Assembly: GCA_016188825.1 (NCBI GenBank)
Contig: JACPHA010000019.1
Coordinates: 1-64,000, forward strand
DNA length: 64,000 bases
Origin: Candidatus Pacearchaeota archaeon
GTDB taxonomy: Archaea > Nanobdellota > Nanobdellia > Pacearchaeales > GW2011-AR1
Reading direction: 5' to 3'
In this document: positions 30,235 through 47,063 of the stretch, piece after piece
Layout of the letters: each line of letters starts with the position of its first letter
How positions within the stretch are numbered: position 1 is the stretch's first letter
Position numbers and translations under genes: made by a program
The notes under the pieces: model-generated
The model's database searches: none
What the model saw: the letters and a program-made list of their open reading frames with translations, nothing else
Told to the model about the DNA's origin: nothing

Positions 30235-30798
30235 TTATAATTCTTTATATCTGAAACAATTAACAAGATGGTCGTTCGTCATTCCTGCTGCCTGCATGAA
30301 GGCATAGCAGATAGTTGAGCCGACGAATTTAAAGCCTCGCTTTTTCAAATCAAGAGACATTGCATCTGATTCTTTCGTTTTTGCAGGCAGTTCTTTTAAA
30401 GATTTAAATTTATTTTTTATTGTTTTATGGTTTGTAAACTGCCAGATGTATTTGTCAAAACTGCCGAATTCTTTTTTAACTTCGAGAAATTTTTGAGCGT
30501 TCGTTACTGTGCTTTGTATTTTTAATTTGTTCCTTATAATTCCTTTGTTATTTAATAATCTCTGAATGTCTTTTTGCGTGTATTTTGCAATTTTGTCAGG
30601 AGCAAAATTATGAAATGCTTTTTTGAAATTTTCTCTTTTATTAATTATGATTTCCCAGTTTAAACCTGCTTGGAAAGCATCTAAAATAAGGTATTCAAAA
30701 AGTTTTTTGTCATCGTGCAAAGGAACCCCCCATTCGTTGTCGTGATAGGCTATCATTAATGAATTTTTTCCAGGCCAATGGCATCTTTTTTGTTCCAT
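30235..30798 (-). CDS. tag: DNA-3-methyladenine glycosylase I (Tag)
   Basis: Removes 3-methyladenine from alkylated DNA to start base excision repair. The 187-residue protein is full length: RCHWPG (Cys6) and YHDNEWG (His19) with a C-terminal DHLVNC supply the zinc ligands, and LDAFQAGLNWEIIINKRENF is the family's catalytic segment. This enzyme is mostly bacterial, so lateral transfer is likely. The gene follows a hydrolase gene by two bases and is probably co-transcribed. Confidence 0.93.
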   Translation of the reverse strand: MEQKRCHWPGKNSLMIAYHDNEWGVPLHDDKKLFEYLILDAFQAGLNWEIIINKRENFKKAFHNFAPDKIAKYTQKDIQRLLNNKGIIRNKLKIQSTVTNAQKFLEVKKEFGSFDKYIWQFTNHKTIKNKFKSLKELPAKTKESDAMSLDLKKRGFKFVGSTICYAFMQAAGMTNDHLVNCFRYKEL

Positions 30799-32585: not shown

Positions 32586-35264
32586 TCAAGCCCTGATTAT
32601 TTTTTTATTTGTGACTAAGTTCGGAGGAGGCATCATGCCTTGCTGTCTTCGGTTTCCAAACCAGCGCGCAAATGGATTTCCGCGAACAGTCCAGTAATAT
32701 GCAATGCCGACTATGATTAATAAAACTACTACAATTATTACCCATAACCATTCCCAGCCAAAACCATCAGATTCATCGCCTTCAATATCTGTTGCATTTT
32801 GTGCTGTTGTAACATTTGTTGTTATGTTTGTTGGAGGCAATGCTGGAATTTGTTCTTGAATGTATAAAATTGTTAAGTTTGCCATGCTGTTTGATATTTC
32901 ATTTAGCTTTATTGATAAATCATAATAGCTATCGTTTGTTACATCAAATTTTTTAGTGTCATTGACATTAAATACTGCTTGTTGTGGTGTTGAAGAAACA
33001 TTTATTGTTGCCTCTGTGCTGGTGAGCTTGACAACCCCGATATAGTGTGTTGTTGCGTTTACCTTGATTTTTATTCTTTCTTTTTCTTTTAGTTTTCTGT
33101 TTATGGTACCTTTTTCACTTAGCTCCTTGTCGTCGTGAGCAAAAGTCACTGTCCAGAAGGTTGTTGCGTTTGTGTCTCCTCCGCCTCCGCCTGAGCTGCT
33201 GCTTGAATCGTTGCTTGAAGTAGCAGTAATAACACTTCCTGAACCTTGCGTCTCTGTTCCAGAAAAGTGTGGAAGTCTTACCCAGATTCTGTTGTTAGAA
33301 GTATCTTTGTAGCAAGGATTTGTTATATTTATTGTGCTTTCGTTTGTGCCGCAGGTAGATTGATTTAATAAATAAGCCCATTCACTTTGTTTTGCGGAAT
33401 AATGAGAATAATTTCCTGCCAGAGCAGATGCAGAAGTGCCGTTTGCAGTTGTATTCCACATCTTATTCCAGTTATCGTCATAGAAAATAGGAATTGAAAT
33501 ATTAACTGTTGCACTTTCATTTAATCCTGTTTGTGAAGAGCTTCCTTCTGTGTAAGGAATTGAAACTAAAACATAATCATATATTGTTGGTCCTAGAGAG
33601 CCAAATCTTAAAGCTGACTGGAATGTTCCTGATGTTGAGGTTGTAGCAGAATCATCAAACAAGGCGTCTGGCGGACCTGAAGCAAGCATGTCTACATTAA
33701 CATAATGAACCAAAATTCCTCCTGTTCCCATTCTGAAACTTAATTTTCCGCCGCCGATTATTGCAGACATTGGATTAAAGCTATCAAGTGTGGTAGAGCT
33801 GCCTACCAAACAAGAAGAGGCAGGGTTTGGAACATCGCAAGTTGAGTTTGATATATAGAGAGCCATGGAAATGCTTGATTCTGCCAGAGTTCCGTCAATC
33901 TCGCCTGGGTTAAATGTCGAAATTGTTATATTATTGTTTGTTTGAATTTGAGAAACAGTCGGAGAGGTTTTTTTAGGAGAATAATCCCCGCCTGATGCGT
34001 AAATATTCATTTCTTTTATTCCTGTTGAATTTAATAAAGGCAGAGAAAAGGAAGCAGAAGCAGATTGCTCTATTTCTTCCATCCAAGTGAATTCTAAAGC
34101 GCCGAAAGAAGAATAATCAATCGTCGCTTCAATGTGTGCAGATGTTTGTGATAATGTGCTATTTGTTGTGTTAACCAAATTAAAGCTCTGTTTTGCCGTT
34201 GATATGTTTATTGTTGTACCATCAACTTTTTCCATTGAAATATTTGAAGCTGTGCCTAACAATCCGCTTAAAGAAAAGTTAAAGCTCGTTGTTTCTGCTG
34301 CAGAGCTTAATGTCAAACTTAAATTTCTGAAGCCTCCATAATAATTACTACCATTTCTTGCTGTTGCGAATAATAATATGCTTGAGGTTTCTGCTGTGCC
34401 AGGAAGTGAGATATTGTAAAAGCCGCTTGTTAGGTTGTGGGTGTCTGTGCCTCCATCGGGAACAAAAGCACTTAAATTATATGGCATGTCCCCGAATGTT
34501 GCATGAACCATGTTTCCCGGCTCTAATAAATAAGGAACAACTGTGAATTCATTCCAGACGGAAATTCCAGAGTAATTAATGTATCCAGATACTCTTTTCA
34601 TTTGAAGAGTTGTGTTAAATTGATATTGCAAGGTTTTTGTTGTAAAGTTGTATTTTGATAAGGAATTAACATCATATGAAGAAGAAGCAGAAAAATTGTT
34701 CCAGTTAAAACTTACTGGCATGCTTTGATTTGGATAAATCATTATTGAATAATTTCTGTCTCTTGGAATGTTAATAATTGCTTCATTAACATTTGATTCA
34801 AAATTATCTGCAATTGGGTAGCCGAGTTTTTGATCTTTGATTTGATATCTGAAAGCGATTCTGCCACCGGAAGAGTTTATCGCAGTAATGTTTATTGTTC
34901 CTGCGTCTCTTAAATAAAATGTTGTGCTTGATAATGTGTTATAAATTAAAGAAGGAAAGGCGGGCAAGCTTTGTCCGATGAAATCAATAAATGTTCCATT
35001 TGTGTGTGTTATTTTTGGCTCGTAAAACCAAGATGAATTTTCTGCAACGGTTAAATTAAACCAACCGGATGCATTTGTTGTTGTGAAATTATAACCGATA
35101 ATTTGAAAGTTTGAGTTTCTTACTGTTATATTAACAACAGAGTTATTCAAGGCATTTCCGTTTGTGTCCTTTACTGTGCCGTTGAAATCAAATCCGGAAG
35201 AAAAATTTAAACTAAGAAAAATTATTAAAACTCCCAAGAGCAAAATATCTCTTTCTTTCACCAT
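32586..35264 (-). CDS. Large surface glycoprotein with C-terminal anchor
   Basis: An 892-residue secreted protein. A signal peptide (about 7-24: ILLLGVLIIFLSLNFSSGF) is followed by a carboxypeptidase-regulatory-like domain (FNGTVKDTNGNALNNS...GWFNLTV, about 27-75), long Ser/Thr/Asn-rich beta domains with dozens of NxS/T sequons, a Ser/Gly stretch (about 685-697), and one C-terminal membrane helix (about 848-866: WEWLWVIIVVVLLIIVGIAY) with a basic tail. It is probably an N-glycosylated cell-surface protein. Family not identified. Confidence 0.8.
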   Translation of the reverse strand: MVKERDILLLGVLIIFLSLNFSSGFDFNGTVKDTNGNALNNSVVNITVRNSNFQIIGYNFTTTNASGWFNLTVAENSSWFYEPKITHTNGTFIDFIGQSLPAFPSLIYNTLSSTTFYLRDAGTINITAINSSGGRIAFRYQIKDQKLGYPIADNFESNVNEAIINIPRDRNYSIMIYPNQSMPVSFNWNNFSASSSYDVNSLSKYNFTTKTLQYQFNTTLQMKRVSGYINYSGISVWNEFTVVPYLLEPGNMVHATFGDMPYNLSAFVPDGGTDTHNLTSGFYNISLPGTAETSSILLFATARNGSNYYGGFRNLSLTLSSAAETTSFNFSLSGLLGTASNISMEKVDGTTINISTAKQSFNLVNTTNSTLSQTSAHIEATIDYSSFGALEFTWMEEIEQSASASFSLPLLNSTGIKEMNIYASGGDYSPKKTSPTVSQIQTNNNITISTFNPGEIDGTLAESSISMALYISNSTCDVPNPASSCLVGSSTTLDSFNPMSAIIGGGKLSFRMGTGGILVHYVNVDMLASGPPDALFDDSATTSTSGTFQSALRFGSLGPTIYDYVLVSIPYTEGSSSQTGLNESATVNISIPIFYDDNWNKMWNTTANGTSASALAGNYSHYSAKQSEWAYLLNQSTCGTNESTINITNPCYKDTSNNRIWVRLPHFSGTETQGSGSVITATSSNDSSSSSGGGGGDTNATTFWTVTFAHDDKELSEKGTINRKLKEKERIKIKVNATTHYIGVVKLTSTEATINVSSTPQQAVFNVNDTKKFDVTNDSYYDLSIKLNEISNSMANLTILYIQEQIPALPPTNITTNVTTAQNATDIEGDESDGFGWEWLWVIIVVVLLIIVGIAYYWTVRGNPFARWFGNRRQQGMMPPPNLVTNKKIIRA

Positions 35265-38130: not shown

Positions 38131-39016
38131 TGTTCATTCGACAAATAAGATAAGCTCTGCTGTAGAGCAGAGTCTTATGAGGAAACTTAACAAGAGAAAG
38201 ATAAAGTGGATTGTAAGGGAAGTTGAAAGGAGGGAGAATGGGCTTTACACAATAGCAAAGACACAAAACATAACACCACAACATACGTGTTATGTTTATC
38301 GAAAGTATAAAAATTGCAAAGATCCTGTCTTGCTTAGACCAGGAAGAAAACCAAAACAAATAAACGATGAAGAAAGGAAAATTATTATTCAAGCATATAA
38401 AGAAATTAGAGCTTCGGCAACGATGATAGAGCAATATCTCGATGAGAAAGGCGTTCATATCAATCATAACAGAATTCATAGAATTTTGCTGGAAGCAAAA
38501 TTAGCTAAAGAAGAGCAAAGAAAAAAGAACAGAAGAACATGGGTCAGATATGAAAGAAAGCATAGTTTAAGTTTGGGACATACTGATTGGTTTGATTATC
38601 TAGGAAGACAAGGCATCATCTTCATTGATGATGCATCAAGATTCATCACTAGTCATGGAGAGTTTAATAATGCAAATACTGATAACTCATTAAAAGTTTT
38701 TAGAAGAGGTTTGAAATGGGGAATTTACAAACAGATGATGAGCGATCATGGACCTCAATTTGAAGAACAATTTACAGAAGGGCTTAAAAAAGCTGGAATA
38801 AAACATATCAAATCGAGAGTTAAGCATCCACAGTCAAACGGAAAGGCTGAAAGAGCTATACAGACGATAAAAAAGCTCTGGAAAGAACTAGGAAGCTTCG
38901 ATAAGGCAGTTGAACAATACAATTACAAGAAACCGCATATGAGCTTAACTAATGGAAAGCTCAGAACTCCTTATCAAGCTTTCCTGGAGAAAAGAAAAAA
39001 ATAAAAACAATGAACA
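38131..39016. mobile_element. IS481-like insertion sequence, probable bounds
   Basis: TGTTCATT at 38131-38138 and its reverse complement AATGAACA at 39009-39016 bracket the transposase gene and may be short terminal inverted repeats. A nearly identical direct repeat, AGAATTTATTTTTGT, lies outside at 38101 and 39057; whether it is a target duplication is unclear. The exact ends are uncertain. Confidence 0.5.
38177..39004 (+). CDS. IS481-family transposase
   Basis: A 275-residue DDE transposase. The N-terminal helix-turn-helix region (about 1-105) is followed by an integrase core with the catalytic triad visible: Asp in SLGHTDWFD (about 133), Asp in MMSDHGPQF (about 193), Glu in NGKAERAIQ (about 230), and KKPHMSLTNGKLRTPYQAF near the C-terminus. 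All motifs are intact, so the protein may be active. A cut relative of it is at 3-152. Confidence 0.9.
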   Translation: MRKLNKRKIKWIVREVERRENGLYTIAKTQNITPQHTCYVYRKYKNCKDPVLLRPGRKPKQINDEERKIIIQAYKEIRASATMIEQYLDEKGVHINHNRIHRILLEAKLAKEEQRKKNRRTWVRYERKHSLSLGHTDWFDYLGRQGIIFIDDASRFITSHGEFNNANTDNSLKVFRRGLKWGIYKQMMSDHGPQFEEQFTEGLKKAGIKHIKSRVKHPQSNGKAERAIQTIKKLWKELGSFDKAVEQYNYKKPHMSLTNGKLRTPYQAFLEKRKK

Positions 39017-41542: not shown

Positions 41543-42685
41543 ATGGAAAAAAGAGGGCAGTTTTTTTTGATTGCGGCATTGGTGATAGTTGGAATAGTTG
41601 TTGGGCTTAGTGTCGTTTATAATTATGCAAAGTTTCCCGAGGAAGATTCTACTGTTTATGACCTCTCTAAGGAAATAAAATTTGAAGGAGCGCAGGTCAT
41701 GACAAGCGGAGTTTTGGAAAATGTGCCTCCGGAACAAATATTAGATAGGTTAAAGGTGATAATGGGATACTATGTAAATGCGAGCACAAATACAGATTTT
41801 CTCGTTATCTATGGGAATGAAACTGACTTGACAATCATATTTTATAATAATACTGACCAGGGTTTGATTTGTGTTGATTTGGGCGGCGGTTCGTGCGAGG
41901 GCAATGACCATATAGCGGCAACGCAAGAACAACACAAATCCCGTGGAGAAACAAGTAATATTATAACTCTTACACTTCCTGACGGAGCGGTTTATACTTT
42001 TGAGTTGAAAGAAGGCCAGGTGTTTTATGCCATTCTTCAAAAGGAAAGTTTTGACGACGTTTTTGTATCCGGAACAGAGCCTTCTGAAGGTACTCCCGCC
42101 GGAGGAACTATAGGCGGAGAAGGGAATCTGTGTCCTAATGGGCACATAAGAAATGATGATGGAACGTGCGGTGTTGAGATAAATAATGTCATAGAAGATG
42201 GAGATATTGTGTCTGCTTTAACTAGTGCTAGTGGGTATGTAAGAAATAATACAAATCAAGAAATTAAGGTTGGAAATATAGTAGGAAAAACCTACAAAGG
42301 TTATATTGAATGGAACTTGAGTGATATCCCGGAAAATGTTAGCATAGAAAATATCAAAATAAGAATTTATGCTAATGGTGTGGTTGAAGGAAGCAAAATT
42401 AAAATTTATAGTTTAAAAAATGCGAGACCTTTGACCAGCCCCAATAATCAACTATTCAATGAAATGAAAGAATCTAATAAATATGGAAGTTATAGTATTA
42501 ATTCCGGTAAGAATGAAGTAGATATAACAAAAAAAGAGAGTACAGAAGATATTAATAATCTCCTCAGCTTAAATGAAAAATGGTTTGCAATTGGATTGGG
42601 TGTAGATGAGGAAAGTAATATCATTAATATAAACTCTGAAGAAAGTAACAATCCGCCAGTTTTAATATTCACTTATACATTTTAA
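41543..42685 (+). CDS. Pilin-like protein with C-terminal beta-sandwich
   Basis: A 380-residue protein with a pilin-like N-terminus (MEKRGQFFLIAALVIVGIVV, helix about 5-25) and an external domain. Residues about 195-210 hold a Cys pair (CPNGH...GTCG). From about 225 a DNRLRE-like sandwich follows: VRNNTNQEIKVG, YIEWNLSDIPENVSIENIKI, RIYANG and WFAIGLGVDE. It is one base from the next pilin gene, so the two form an operon. Confidence 0.75.
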   Translation: MEKRGQFFLIAALVIVGIVVGLSVVYNYAKFPEEDSTVYDLSKEIKFEGAQVMTSGVLENVPPEQILDRLKVIMGYYVNASTNTDFLVIYGNETDLTIIFYNNTDQGLICVDLGGGSCEGNDHIAATQEQHKSRGETSNIITLTLPDGAVYTFELKEGQVFYAILQKESFDDVFVSGTEPSEGTPAGGTIGGEGNLCPNGHIRNDDGTCGVEINNVIEDGDIVSALTSASGYVRNNTNQEIKVGNIVGKTYKGYIEWNLSDIPENVSIENIKIRIYANGVVEGSKIKIYSLKNARPLTSPNNQLFNEMKESNKYGSYSINSGKNEVDITKKESTEDINNLLSLNEKWFAIGLGVDEESNIININSEESNNPPVLIFTYTF

Positions 42686-42686
42686 A

Positions 42687-43166
42687 ATGCAAATAAAAAT
42701 GAAAAATAAAAAAGGAGTAAGTTTAATTGTTTCTTATGTTTTGTTAGTCATTATTACAGTTTCATTGGGAGCGATTGTTTATAGTTATTTGAAAACGCAA
42801 TTGCCTGGGGAGAAGGCTGAATGTCCTAGCGATATAAATCTGATTATTGAAGAGGCGAGTTGTTCTGGAAATAAACTGAATGTTACTTTTTCTAATAGGG
42901 GGTTGTTTAATGTTTCAGGGGTTTTTGTCAGACTTGATAGTGCAAACAGAACAGCAAGAAGGCAAGTTAACAACGGCAGTGAAATTTTTATAAATCCTCT
43001 TCGGCCTGGCGGAGTTATTGAGTTTAGCTACAACATTCCTTCAAGTATTTTGTCTGGTGGCTCAGCAAATTATGTTTTAGAAATTCAGGCGGCTTCTTTA
43101 GTAAAAAGAACTTTGGTTCCATGTAAAGGAACAGTGATAACACAACCATTAGAGTGCAACGTTTAG
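42687..43166 (+). CDS. Type IV pilin-like protein, ending at an in-frame TAG
   Basis: A 159-residue protein with a classic archaeal class III signal: KKGVSLIVSYVLLVIITVSL (about 8-27), where cleavage before the hydrophobic helix would release a pilin. The external domain has two Cys pairs (ECPSD, ASCSG, VPCKG, LECNV). The stop TAG at 43164-43166 is followed in the same frame by 160 open codons (43167-43646) that look like a continuation. An alternative inner start is the ATG four codons on (MKNKKG). Confidence 0.75.
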   Translation: MQIKMKNKKGVSLIVSYVLLVIITVSLGAIVYSYLKTQLPGEKAECPSDINLIIEEASCSGNKLNVTFSNRGLFNVSGVFVRLDSANRTARRQVNNGSEIFINPLRPGGVIEFSYNIPSSILSGGSANYVLEIQAASLVKRTLVPCKGTVITQPLECNV

Positions 43167-43646
43167 CCGCCTCCCACGTCGCCCGCTTTCTCGATAATAG
43201 AATCTAATAGTAATGTGTTTGTCTCGGGCATGAAAAATCATCCTTTGATTTTTAAAACCAGTGGAAATAGTTATAATATTATTAGTTATATAGATGCCAA
43301 ACGTGTTAATGTTAGTGGTAATGCGAGCGCAGAACAGACTGACAACATTTTCTTTGTTAGACATTATGGTAAAGTAATTGGAGATTATATCTATTTCGAC
43401 GAAGCTAGTGAGATATTGGGATACAACTACACAAATGTTCCGATAAATGGTTCTGTTTATTTTGGTTCTAATCCCGACGAGACAAAGGACATTTTTGAAT
43501 TTACTACATCTAGAAATAGATATTCGATTGTTGGGTTTAGTGGGGGTACTACAAAGTTCGTTAATCTGAAAAATAATGCAACTGGTGAGGCTCCCTTTGA
43601 TGAATTCACGATTGAAAGAAATGGGACACTGAAAAGCGTAACATAG
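43167..43646 (+). pseudogene. Downstream half of the pilin-like gene after TAG
   Basis: Same frame as 42687-43166, separated only by one TAG. It begins PPPTSPAFSIIES, a Pro-rich linker like those inside pilins, then a 140-residue beta-rich domain (HPLIFKTSGNSYNIISYIDA, KVIGDYIYFDEAS, NGSVYFGS) that ends at 43646. A GTG at 43215 could restart translation. Either a nonsense mutation made a pseudogene, or TAG is read through, or the base call is wrong. The 30 bases after TAG are unusually GC-rich. Confidence 0.6.
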
Positions 43647-43864
43647 AATCTGTAATTGTAAAACAGGATTCTGTTAAGCTAACGGGTGATAAAATAGAAA
43701 TTTATCGTTAATAATCATATAATTATCTCAACAAGTCCAAAATATTAATTTATTATGAGACTTTATCTTTACAAATTTAAGTCATTTGAAATGTTGATAG
43801 CCTTTTCAGTTAAACAAAATCCAAAACAGCAATATATAAATAACTCCTCTTGGTTTGAAAAAAT

Positions 43865-45016
43865 ATGAAATTTGCGCACATGGGTGATTGCCATTTGGGG
43901 GGATGGAGAGTTCCGGAATTGAGAGAACTTAATTTTAAACACTTTAAAGAGGCGGTTAATAGATGCATAAAAGAGAAGGTTGATTTTATTTTAATTTCTG
44001 GGGACTTGTTTGATTCTGCTTATCCACCGATAGAAATTTTAAAAAAGACATTTGAAGAATTTAGGAAAATAAAAGAGGCGAACATTCCGGTTTTTTTGAT
44101 AGCTGGGAGTCATGATTATTCTGTTTCTGGAAAAACATTTTTGGATGTGCTAGAGAAAGCGGGCTTTTGCAAGAATGTTGGAATTTACGAAGAAAAAGAA
44201 GGCAAAATAATTTTAGAGCCTGTGATTTATAAAAATGTCATTATTTATGGGTATCCTGGCAAAAAATCGGGGCTTGAAGTAGAAGAAATTGAAAAAATTA
44301 AAATTCAACAATCGCCGTTGTTTAAGATTTTGATGCTGCACACAGCAATTAGAGATGCTGTTCAGAATCCCGCAATAAACGCCGTTGATGAAAAATATCT
44401 GCCTAAGGTAGATTATCTTGCCCTTTCGCATTTGCATATTAATTATAACAGAGAGGGGAGAGTTTATTCTGGTCCGATATTCCCAAATAATATATCAGAA
44501 TTGGATGAATTAAAAGAAGGTTCTTTTTATATTTTCGATAATGGAAAAATAAGAAGAGAGAGAATTTCTTTAAAGGAAGTGATTTCAATTCATTTGGAAA
44601 CAAATAACTCATTGACTGCGACCGAGAATATTCTTGAAATGTTAAGTAAAGAAAATGTTAAAGATAAAATTGTGATAATTAAAGTTTCTGGAGTTATGGA
44701 AAAAGGCAAAGTTTCTGATATTGATTTTTACAAAATTGAAAATTATTTGAAAGAGCTTGGAGCTTTTGCTTTTTTAAAAAGCACTTCGAAACTTCATGTT
44801 GTTGAACCTGAAATTAAGATTGATATCGTTGATTCTGAAAATTTTGAAAATGAAATAATAAAGAAATTTGAGCAGAATGGCAAGAGCAGATTTAGTTGTT
44901 TGGTTCCGGATCTTATGGGGGTTTTAAAAATTGAAAAACTCGAAGATGAAACTTTGTCAAGTTTTGAAGATAGACTGATGTCTGAGATAAACATTATGTT
45001 TAAAAATGAGATTTAA
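43865..45016 (+). CDS. mre11: DNA double-strand break repair nuclease Mre11
   Basis: Mre11 processes DNA ends together with Rad50. The 383-residue protein has the phosphodiesterase motifs MGDCHLGGWR (about 6-15), LISGDLFDSAYPP (about 43-55), LIAGSHDYS (about 79-87), LMLHTAI and LSHLHINY. Motif III is GSHD here rather than the common GNHD, as in some other archaeal proteins. A TATA box AATATATAAATAA (43831-43843) is about 25 bases before the ATG, so the transcript is almost leaderless. It overlaps rad50 by 11 bases. Confidence 0.93.
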   Translation: MKFAHMGDCHLGGWRVPELRELNFKHFKEAVNRCIKEKVDFILISGDLFDSAYPPIEILKKTFEEFRKIKEANIPVFLIAGSHDYSVSGKTFLDVLEKAGFCKNVGIYEEKEGKIILEPVIYKNVIIYGYPGKKSGLEVEEIEKIKIQQSPLFKILMLHTAIRDAVQNPAINAVDEKYLPKVDYLALSHLHINYNREGRVYSGPIFPNNISELDELKEGSFYIFDNGKIRRERISLKEVISIHLETNNSLTATENILEMLSKENVKDKIVIIKVSGVMEKGKVSDIDFYKIENYLKELGAFAFLKSTSKLHVVEPEIKIDIVDSENFENEIIKKFEQNGKSRFSCLVPDLMGVLKIEKLEDETLSSFEDRLMSEINIMFKNEI

Positions 45017-47063
45017 AAAAATAAAAATAAGAAATATAAGGTCGTATAAACAACAAGAAATAGAATTTCCCAGAGGGTCCCTGCTGCTTTCTGGTGATGT
45101 TGGGGTTGGAAAAACTTCTATATTGCTTGCGATTGAATATGCTTTTTTTGGCCTGCAACCTGGTCAAAAAGGAAATTCCTTATTGCGGAATAATAAAGAT
45201 GTTGGTGAGGTCTCTCTTGAAATGGAAATCGGCGGCAAAAGAGTAATTATAGACAGAAAATTAAAAAGGACAAATAAGGGAGTGAGCAATGAATACGCTG
45301 CCTTGACAGTCGACAATGAAAGGTTTGAATCTTCTGTAACCGAAATAAAATCAAAAATTGTGGACCTGCTTGGATATCCGCGGGAGTTTGTTAAAAAAAA
45401 TAATTTATTATATGGGTACACTGTTTACAGCCCGCAAGAAAAAATGAAAGAAATTATTTTAGAAGATTCTGAAACAAGGTTGAATATCTTAAGGCACATT
45501 TTTGGAGTTGACAAGTATAAAAGGATAAAAGGAAATTTGGATATATTTATGAATAATCTGAGAAGTGACAATAAAATATTACAGGGTGAAATAAAAACAC
45601 TTGAGCAAGATAAAGAATATTTAAAACGAAAAAAAACAAGTTTGACTGAAATAGAAAAAAGAACAAAAGAAATTGAATTAAATCTTATAGAAAAAATCGA
45701 GGCAAAGGAAAAGAAAGAAAATGAGCTTGCGCAGTTTAAGGATAAAAACATGGAAAGAACTGCTCTTGAAAAGGAAATGGAAAAAAATAAAGTTATGATA
45801 TTAAACAAAAGAGAACTTCTTTCTTCTCTGATTAGCGAATCTGCAGAGATAAGAAGGGCTATCAGCGAGGTGAAAGATGGTTTTAGCGAAAGTAATTATA
45901 ATTCCATTATAAATGAAGCGAACAATAAAAAAAATGAGCTTGAACTGCTAAACTCTCTTTTTTTTGAAGCGACAAGCAGGATTAATTATTTGGCAGAAGA
46001 AGAAGGGAATTTTTTGAAAAAAAAGGAAAGAATATTTAAGATTGATATCTGCCCGACCTGCCTGCAGGATGTTCCAGAGGCACATAAGCATAATATTCTG
46101 AATGAAACAGAGAATAAAATCCAAGAAATAAAAAATACTTTGGAAAAATTTAAAATTCAAAAAGAGAAAATTCTCGGGGGCATTAAAAATATCAGGCTTG
46201 CTATTGATAATCTTGAGGAGGAAAAAATTAAACTTGAGATATTGAAGACAAGATTGGAATATGCTGAAAAATCTCGAGATAAACTGAAAGAATTAGAAAA
46301 AAATAGAGAAAATATAGAAAAAGATATTGTTCTGCTTGCTGCTCATTCTGTGGGGATAAAAGAAAAATTGCTTGAATTCAGTCAATTTGACAGTTTATAT
46401 AAGAAAAAAGAAATTGAATTGAAACAGGCGGTTCAGGAAGAAAAAAGAGAGGAGATTGCTTTGGCGGAGCTAAAAAAAGAATTGGAGCTGATAAAAAAAG
46501 AAATAATTTTTCTTGAAGATGGGATAAAAAATAAAGAGGAAAGGAAGAAAAAACTTGAAGAAAGAAGGGAGCTGATTGATTGGCTTTCCTCAGAATTTTT
46601 GAGCATTGTCGATATAATTGAAAGAAATGTTCTGCTGAAGTTAAGAGCCGAGTTTTCTAATTTATTCAGAAAATGGTTTCAGATGCTGGTTCCGGAAAAT
46701 TCTTTGGAATCTCAAATTGATGATAATTTTACACCTATTATAATGCAGGGAGAAGCTGAGATAGATTATGAGTTTTTGTCTGGCGGAGAAAGAACTGCTG
46801 TTGCATTGGCTTATCGTTTAGCTTTGAATCAACTGATTAATTCTTTATTGAGTAAGATAGAAACAAAGGGAGTTATTATATTGGATGAGCCGACCGATGG
46901 TTTTTCAGAGATACAGATAAACAAAATGCGGGAGATTTTTGCTGAAATCAAAGCAGAGCAGTTGATAATTGTAAGCCATGAGCAGAAAATTGAGGGTTTT
47001 GTCGATAATGTTTTGAAAGTTGCGAAAGAAAACGGGCAGAGTTTTATTGAAAACGTTAGTTAA
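45006..47063 (+). CDS. rad50: DNA double-strand break repair ATPase Rad50
   Basis: An SMC-like ATPase that bridges DNA ends with Mre11. Walker A GDVGVGKTS is at 30-38, the zinc hook CPTC at 349-352 with coiled coil on both sides (about 170-340 and 360-560), and at the C-terminus the signature LSGGERTAVALAYRL and Walker B GVIILDEPTDGF. At 685 residues it is shorter than typical archaeal Rad50 (about 880), because the coiled coil is shortened. The overlap with mre11 shows a shared operon. Confidence 0.94.
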   Translation: MRFKKIKIRNIRSYKQQEIEFPRGSLLLSGDVGVGKTSILLAIEYAFFGLQPGQKGNSLLRNNKDVGEVSLEMEIGGKRVIIDRKLKRTNKGVSNEYAALTVDNERFESSVTEIKSKIVDLLGYPREFVKKNNLLYGYTVYSPQEKMKEIILEDSETRLNILRHIFGVDKYKRIKGNLDIFMNNLRSDNKILQGEIKTLEQDKEYLKRKKTSLTEIEKRTKEIELNLIEKIEAKEKKENELAQFKDKNMERTALEKEMEKNKVMILNKRELLSSLISESAEIRRAISEVKDGFSESNYNSIINEANNKKNELELLNSLFFEATSRINYLAEEEGNFLKKKERIFKIDICPTCLQDVPEAHKHNILNETENKIQEIKNTLEKFKIQKEKILGGIKNIRLAIDNLEEEKIKLEILKTRLEYAEKSRDKLKELEKNRENIEKDIVLLAAHSVGIKEKLLEFSQFDSLYKKKEIELKQAVQEEKREEIALAELKKELELIKKEIIFLEDGIKNKEERKKKLEERRELIDWLSSEFLSIVDIIERNVLLKLRAEFSNLFRKWFQMLVPENSLESQIDDNFTPIIMQGEAEIDYEFLSGGERTAVALAYRLALNQLINSLLSKIETKGVIILDEPTDGFSEIQINKMREIFAEIKAEQLIIVSHEQKIEGFVDNVLKVAKENGQSFIENVS

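What the first reader, a model, noticed from the sequence alone, without database searches (positions are those of the whole stretch)
42687..43646. Pilin-like gene interrupted by one in-frame TAG
The 159-residue pilin ends at TAG, but the same frame stays open for 160 more codons and reads as a plausible continuation (Pro-rich linker, then a beta domain). The 30 bases after TAG are notably GC-rich. Possibilities are a recent nonsense mutation, stop-codon readthrough giving a long and a short pilin, or a sequencing error.
Basis: seen in the sequence. Interest (0 to 1): 0.6.

Follow-up and report, generated by a model that had tools for sequence, protein, structure and literature searches.

The report
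Archaeal pilin losing its outer domain
In this archaeal genome a surface-fibre (pilin) gene still encodes a complete core protein, but an extra outer domain of the kind many relatives carry is cut off by a stop codon; this is most likely ordinary gene decay, and special translation past the stop has no support.

Summary
In detail: ORF 42687-43166 ends in TAG and the same frame stays open for 159 more codons. The run is not chance (0 of 20000 resamples). The interpretation needs sharpening.

The 159-residue core is a complete archaeal type IV pilin. It has four invariant cysteines, a confident model (pLDDT 90.7) whose last strand ends at residue 158, and a Pyrobaculum pilus subunit as best structural match. 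Most of the relatives I read stop at the same place, just after the last cysteine; 11 of 60 carry an extra domain there, of several kinds. So the TAG lies at the pilin/extension junction. One bare congener differs from two long ones by an extension-sized block.

Most likely the extension was recently cut off by a nonsense mutation, leaving a functional bare pilin. Nothing supports readthrough: TAG is an ordinary stop here, no pyrrolysine synthetase reaches cut-off, no CTA-anticodon tRNA was found, and no RNA structure follows the stop. The GC-rich stretch encodes a Pro-rich linker-like peptide.

Against simple truncation, the extension has no detectable relatives and its first third has poor codon usage. 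Reads were unavailable, so a consensus error is not excluded.

The parts
42687..43163 (+). Complete pilin core, 159 aa: positively charged start, class III-type leader KKG-VS, N-terminal helix (residues 8-38), beta domain (52-158) with four invariant Cys (46, 59, 146, 157)
43164..43166 (+). TAG stop at codon 160, three codons after the invariant last Cys, at the pilin/extension junction
43167..43193 (+). GC-rich stretch reading PPPTSPAFS: Pro-rich linker-like
43167..43643 (+). In-frame open extension, 159 codons, six N-X-S/T sequons, no leader of its own, no detectable relatives; second stop TAG 43644-43646
43616..43711 (+). Run open in the -1 frame past the second TAG, to TAA 43709-43711; considered as a second lesion, not significant
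   Evidence: 76 of 190 open wrong-frame stretches score as well
41543..42685 (+). Neighbouring pilin-like protein (380 aa) with a C-terminal CBM96-like domain, just under the Pfam cut-off
43865..45016 (+). mre11-like gene directly downstream, conserved neighbour in relatives
45006..47063 (+). rad50-like gene

Best explanation
A type IV pilin gene whose protein consisted of the conserved pilin core plus a fast-changing extracellular C-terminal domain has taken a stop codon at the junction of the two. The cell now makes the bare pilin, a form that most relatives make anyway and that should still be processed and assembled. The 159 codons behind the stop are an untranslated domain at an early stage of loss. 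Shown: complete core, stop at the junction, an open run not due to chance, alternation of bare and extended forms among relatives. Inferred: that the extension was once translated as part of this gene, that the stop is recent, and that the bare pilin works.
For: Core conserved and complete. 11 of 60 other loci carry an in-frame extension at this point; the tree needs at least 8 changes between bare and extended, 5 of them forced by starred branches. Bare L009 lies in a starred three-row clade with L007 and L011, which share an extension; the alignment places the difference mainly in one extension-sized block between the last Cys codons and the intergenic region before mre11. Open run not chance. 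Pro-rich linker-like start in this frame. Sequon density of the extension ranks 2nd of 110 ORFs on the contig, fitting an extracellular domain, yet it has no leader of its own. TAG is a normal stop here (18 of 110 ORFs).
Against: No relative has this extension: 180 family genomes and 371 phylum genomes (the window's own included in both) gave only the window itself plus one weak match each, and I judge those two to be chance (context read); the genome contigs and viral scans found none. Profile comparison with two other extension types found nothing. The first third of the extension scores like a wrong frame. Sequon excess over the extension's own composition is slight: 255 of 5000 shuffles reach it. 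No reads, so the stop itself is unverified.
Confidence: 0.55

Rival explanations
1. The TAG is the native stop of a bare pilin; the downstream frame is a piece of another gene, or a small separate gene (possible starts 43215 or 43230), that lies in frame by chance.
For: Most relatives are bare and stop at the same place. Codon usage of the first 53 codons is poor (1 of 275 real stretches as low) while the rest is normal. L010 has a separate ORF between pilin and mre11. No homologue links the extension to the pilin.
Against: Linker-like Pro-rich start in this very frame; no leader peptide for a sequon-rich product; in-frame by chance is 1 in 3.
Confidence: 0.22
2. Consensus or assembly error, or a strain mixture: the real gene is open through both parts.
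For: The genome is an incomplete draft (82.8% complete, 20 contigs). Long forms are normal in relatives.
Against: Substitution errors in a covered consensus are rare (general knowledge). In the C8 list of ORFs followed by 50 or more open codons (6 of 110) I saw no other clear case of this kind, though I did not test the other five for homology.
Confidence: 0.13
3. Programmed readthrough of the TAG gives a short and a long pilin, the long one displaying an adhesive domain on some subunits.
For: The stop sits exactly between two domains, the frame behind it has no further stop for 159 codons, and long and short forms both exist in the family.
Against: No PylS over cut-off: two weak hits of about 18 bits against a cut-off of 178, judged to be other synthetases. 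No CTA-anticodon tRNA in 35 typed of 36 tRNA matches once introns sit at the canonical place; two ARAGORN intron settings called one of them CTA, a third called it Gln-CTG. Post-stop RNA no more folded than shuffles (z +0.71 and +1.03). No other TAG-ended ORF on C8 continues in frame beyond 24 codons. No second relative with this arrangement is clear among 61 loci.
Confidence: 0.1

Closest known systems
Archaeal type IV pilin (class III leader); Pyrobaculum calidifontis pilus subunit, PDB 8fk7
   Same: N-terminal helix plus beta domain; best hit by fold (E 9.6e-5, TM 0.45-0.50) and by profile (E 3.1e-4)
   Different: Low identity (16%); the four invariant Cys were not checked in 8fk7
UpsA, UV-inducible pilin of Sulfolobales (NCBIfam NF046073)
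   Same: 21 of 24 members match at E 0.1 or better, the window's at E 5.8e-7 over residues 8-135; encoded beside recombination-repair genes, while Ups pili serve DNA exchange and repair (PMC7064770, abstract and passages)
   Different: Score 29.7 against a cut-off of 130; Ups specificity maps to an internal stretch of UpsA, not to added C-terminal domains
In-frame stop codons in prokaryotic genes (PMC7918605, abstract and outline read)
   Same: A stop inside an otherwise open gene
Pyrrolysine readthrough of UAG in archaea (PMC8211752, passages read)
   Same: In-frame UAG in an archaeal gene
   Different: No PylS over cut-off, no CTA tRNA found, and a pilin is not a methylamine methyltransferase

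Membership tests
Archaeal type IV pilin | Class III leader and N-terminal hydrophobic helix | tested here: met
   KKG-VS leader read in sequence (motif recalled); helix 8-38; TIGR02537 18.9 bits, just under its cut-off of 20; Pfam Pilin_N matched 2 of 24 members and not the window's own
Archaeal type IV pilin | Beta-rich C-terminal domain, fold match to a solved pilus | tested here: met
   TM about 0.45-0.50, so moderate
Archaeal type IV pilin | Pilus ATPase and prepilin peptidase in the genome | tested here: met
   PF00437 three places over cut-off, PF01478 one place over cut-off; which ATPase serves pili was not determined
UpsA (NF046073) | Score over the curated cut-off | tested here: not met
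   29.7 bits against 130
Pyrrolysine recoding | PylS and tRNA-Pyl(CTA) | tested here: not met
   draft genome 82.8% complete
Programmed stop readthrough | Extension under purifying selection while the stop is kept | not testable with these tools
   no homologue of the extension found
Nonsense-truncated gene | Sense codon at the site in close relatives | not testable with these tools
   no relative with this extension; reads unavailable

The most novel reading that the evidence does not exclude
Leaky termination at the junction lets an archaeon place a variable recognition domain on a minority of otherwise bare, UpsA-like pilins, so that one gene makes both shaft and decorated subunits.
Probability: 0.07. 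Interest if true: 0.75.

Novelty: new member of a known kind. Interest (0 to 1): 0.27.

Why it matters
As it stands it is one case of domain loss in a surface protein. It points to a broader pattern: these pilins swap, gain and lose outer domains at a fixed junction behind the last cysteine, which could be how small archaea change what they stick to. The conserved place beside mre11-rad50 in one clade is the more interesting lead.

Tried and rejected
Genome-wide TAG recoding: rejected. A 3' RNA signal: none. A second lesion, a one-base frameshift near 43616-43646 with an open -1 frame to TAA 43709-43711: the codon score cannot tell it from chance (76 of 190 open wrong-frame stretches as high, 36 of 691 real ones as low), so I do not claim it. 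My checkpoint note put that stop at 43711-43713; one search corrects it. Homologues of the extension: the hits in G006 (inside an ORF that reads to me like a methyltransferase) and G302 (inside an ORF that reads like a hexapeptide-repeat transferase) are judged chance by eye. PDB sequence search of the extension: best E 0.44, nothing. Structure of the extension: pLDDT 35, useless. I thought that the first residues of the extension resembled the Ig-like start of the L015 type; hhalign gave probability 0.1%, so dropped. L046: 22 codons after its stop read Cys-rich, like extensions in L041, L057 and L063; suggestive by eye of a second truncated extension, not tested. A note of mine calls the L009 difference 'about 450 nt' in one block; the alignment scatters a few short matches inside it, so block boundaries are approximate. 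Searching genome contigs with the core found no relative, although genome search found many: the pattern scan reaches close relatives only.

Full report
OBSERVATION. The sequence is as described: a 159-residue ORF from ATG 42687 to TAG 43164-43166, then 159 sense codons in the same frame to TAG 43644-43646. None of 20000 Markov resamples of the downstream stretch stays open that long, and its codon score (0.17) is above the other frames (-0.18, -0.20). The score is uneven: codons 1-53 score -0.02, and only 1 of 275 real-gene stretches of that length is as low, while 363 of 550 wrong-frame stretches are as high. So the distal two thirds look like native coding sequence and the first third does not; foreign origin, decay or non-coding origin of that part are all possible.

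CONTEXT. The window is part of contig C8 of a 1.0 Mb draft genome in 20 contigs, 82.8% complete. I take it for a DPANN archaeon from gene content and recall; no call names it. The mre11-like gene starts 698 bases after the TAG, then rad50. Upstream is another pilin-like protein with a CBM96-like end, 25.0 bits against a cut-off of 26.

THE CORE IS COMPLETE. 163 of 180 family genomes (own included) hold a relative of the core at E 0.001; all 10 genomes of the genus do. I aligned 24 cores, chosen mainly from the closest of the 61 loci: four Cys are invariant, the last at residue 157. The AlphaFold2 model on this alignment has mean pLDDT 90.7, a helix at 8-38 and a beta domain whose last strand ends at 158. 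The best fold match is the Pyrobaculum calidifontis type IV pilus (E 9.6e-5), also the best profile match in the PDB (E 3.1e-4). NCBIfam UpsA matches 21 of 24 members, the window's below its cut-off. The genome has T2SSE-type ATPases and a prepilin peptidase.

THE JUNCTION. I read the best 61 places, the window's among them; the remaining listed places were not read. 11 of the 60 others continue in frame by an extension (two of these, L056 and L069, run off the contig); 49 do not, and of those most stop 0-8 residues after the last Cys. Extensions are of several kinds: of ten long forms scanned, two have Laminin_G_3 domains and eight have no Pfam match at E 0.01 (L056 was not scanned). A tree of the 61 cores needs at least 8 changes between bare and extended, 5 forced by starred branches; 20 of 500 shuffles are as low for the extended label, so the trait is only slightly clustered. 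Bare L009 sits in a starred three-row clade with L007 and L011, whose extensions are 38% identical; DNA alignment shows the extension-sized block absent from L009 and the intergenic DNA before mre11 shared, with approximate boundaries. I read this as extensions at this junction being gained and lost as units.

THE WINDOW'S CASE. It is the only one of 61 loci with a run of more than 100 open codons behind the stop that is not plainly a following gene; the other long runs are L071 (182 codons, with a new pilin leader), L064 (81, starting at Met) and L060 (61, not explained). The extension carries six N-X-S/T sequons in 159 residues, second of 110 ORFs on the contig (that ORF list enters it from its GTG at 43215), but 255 of 5000 shuffles of its own letters reach six, so composition explains most of this. 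It has no leader, so export would need fusion to the pilin. The GC-rich bases after the TAG begin PPPTSPAFS in this frame; the 12 Pro-rich ten-residue stretches found elsewhere in the window's genes have GC 0.40-0.57, so 0.67 is higher but in the same direction.

READTHROUGH. Against it: TAG ends 18 of 110 ORFs on C8 and the other 17 close again within 24 codons; PylS is absent at cut-off; of 36 tRNA matches 35 were typed; one intron-bearing tRNA was called CTA by two ARAGORN intron settings and Gln-CTG by a third, which fits an intron at the usual archaeal place between 37 and 38 (my reading; the place is recalled); RNA after the stop is not unusually folded. The passages I read of an archaeal recoding review discuss stop readthrough as selenocysteine and pyrrolysine insertion (PMC8211752). 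None of this excludes low-level leakiness.

VERDICT. Observation confirmed; best read as loss by truncation of a variable outer domain from an intact pilin, confidence 0.55. The main rival is that the TAG is the native stop and the frame behind it belongs to something else. Literature searches with the terms found no paper on a DPANN pilin beside mre11-rad50, on DPANN UpsA, or on an archaeal pilin truncated or read through in this way; only openly licensed PMC papers are held.

Noticed in passing
window 42687-47063; L005-L011, L014, L017, L019-L022, L035, L053, L061, L067, L073: An UpsA-like pilin lies directly upstream of an mre11-like gene in 19 of 61 loci, the window's included (DNA pattern search, so a minimum); all 19 fall in one 27-row clade. 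Ups pili serve DNA exchange for recombination repair in Sulfolobales, so the conserved neighbourhood may be functional.
   Followed up: partly
L046, after the pilin stop: 22 codons after the TAA read TEECTPDCSCTKTTCVG..., like Cys-rich extensions in other loci: possibly a second truncated extension.
   Followed up: partly
L011 1110-1375: Tandem copies of a roughly 50-base unit between the long pilin and mre11, parts of it shared with L007 and L009.
   Followed up: no
L004 (G000:C20, near 30513-30734): Another pilin-like protein of the same genome with a long open C-terminal extension rich in Asn and Gly.
   Followed up: no
window 38177-39004: Integrase-core (rve) transposase-like gene some 3.7 kb upstream.
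   Followed up: no
window 32586-35264: 892-aa protein with 48 N-X-S/T sequons, the densest of 110 ORFs on the contig.
   Followed up: no
G000 tRNA genes (L098, L100, L103, L104, L106-L109, L111): Nine tRNA genes carry predicted introns of 33-70 bases; different intron settings assign several of them different anticodons.
   Followed up: partly
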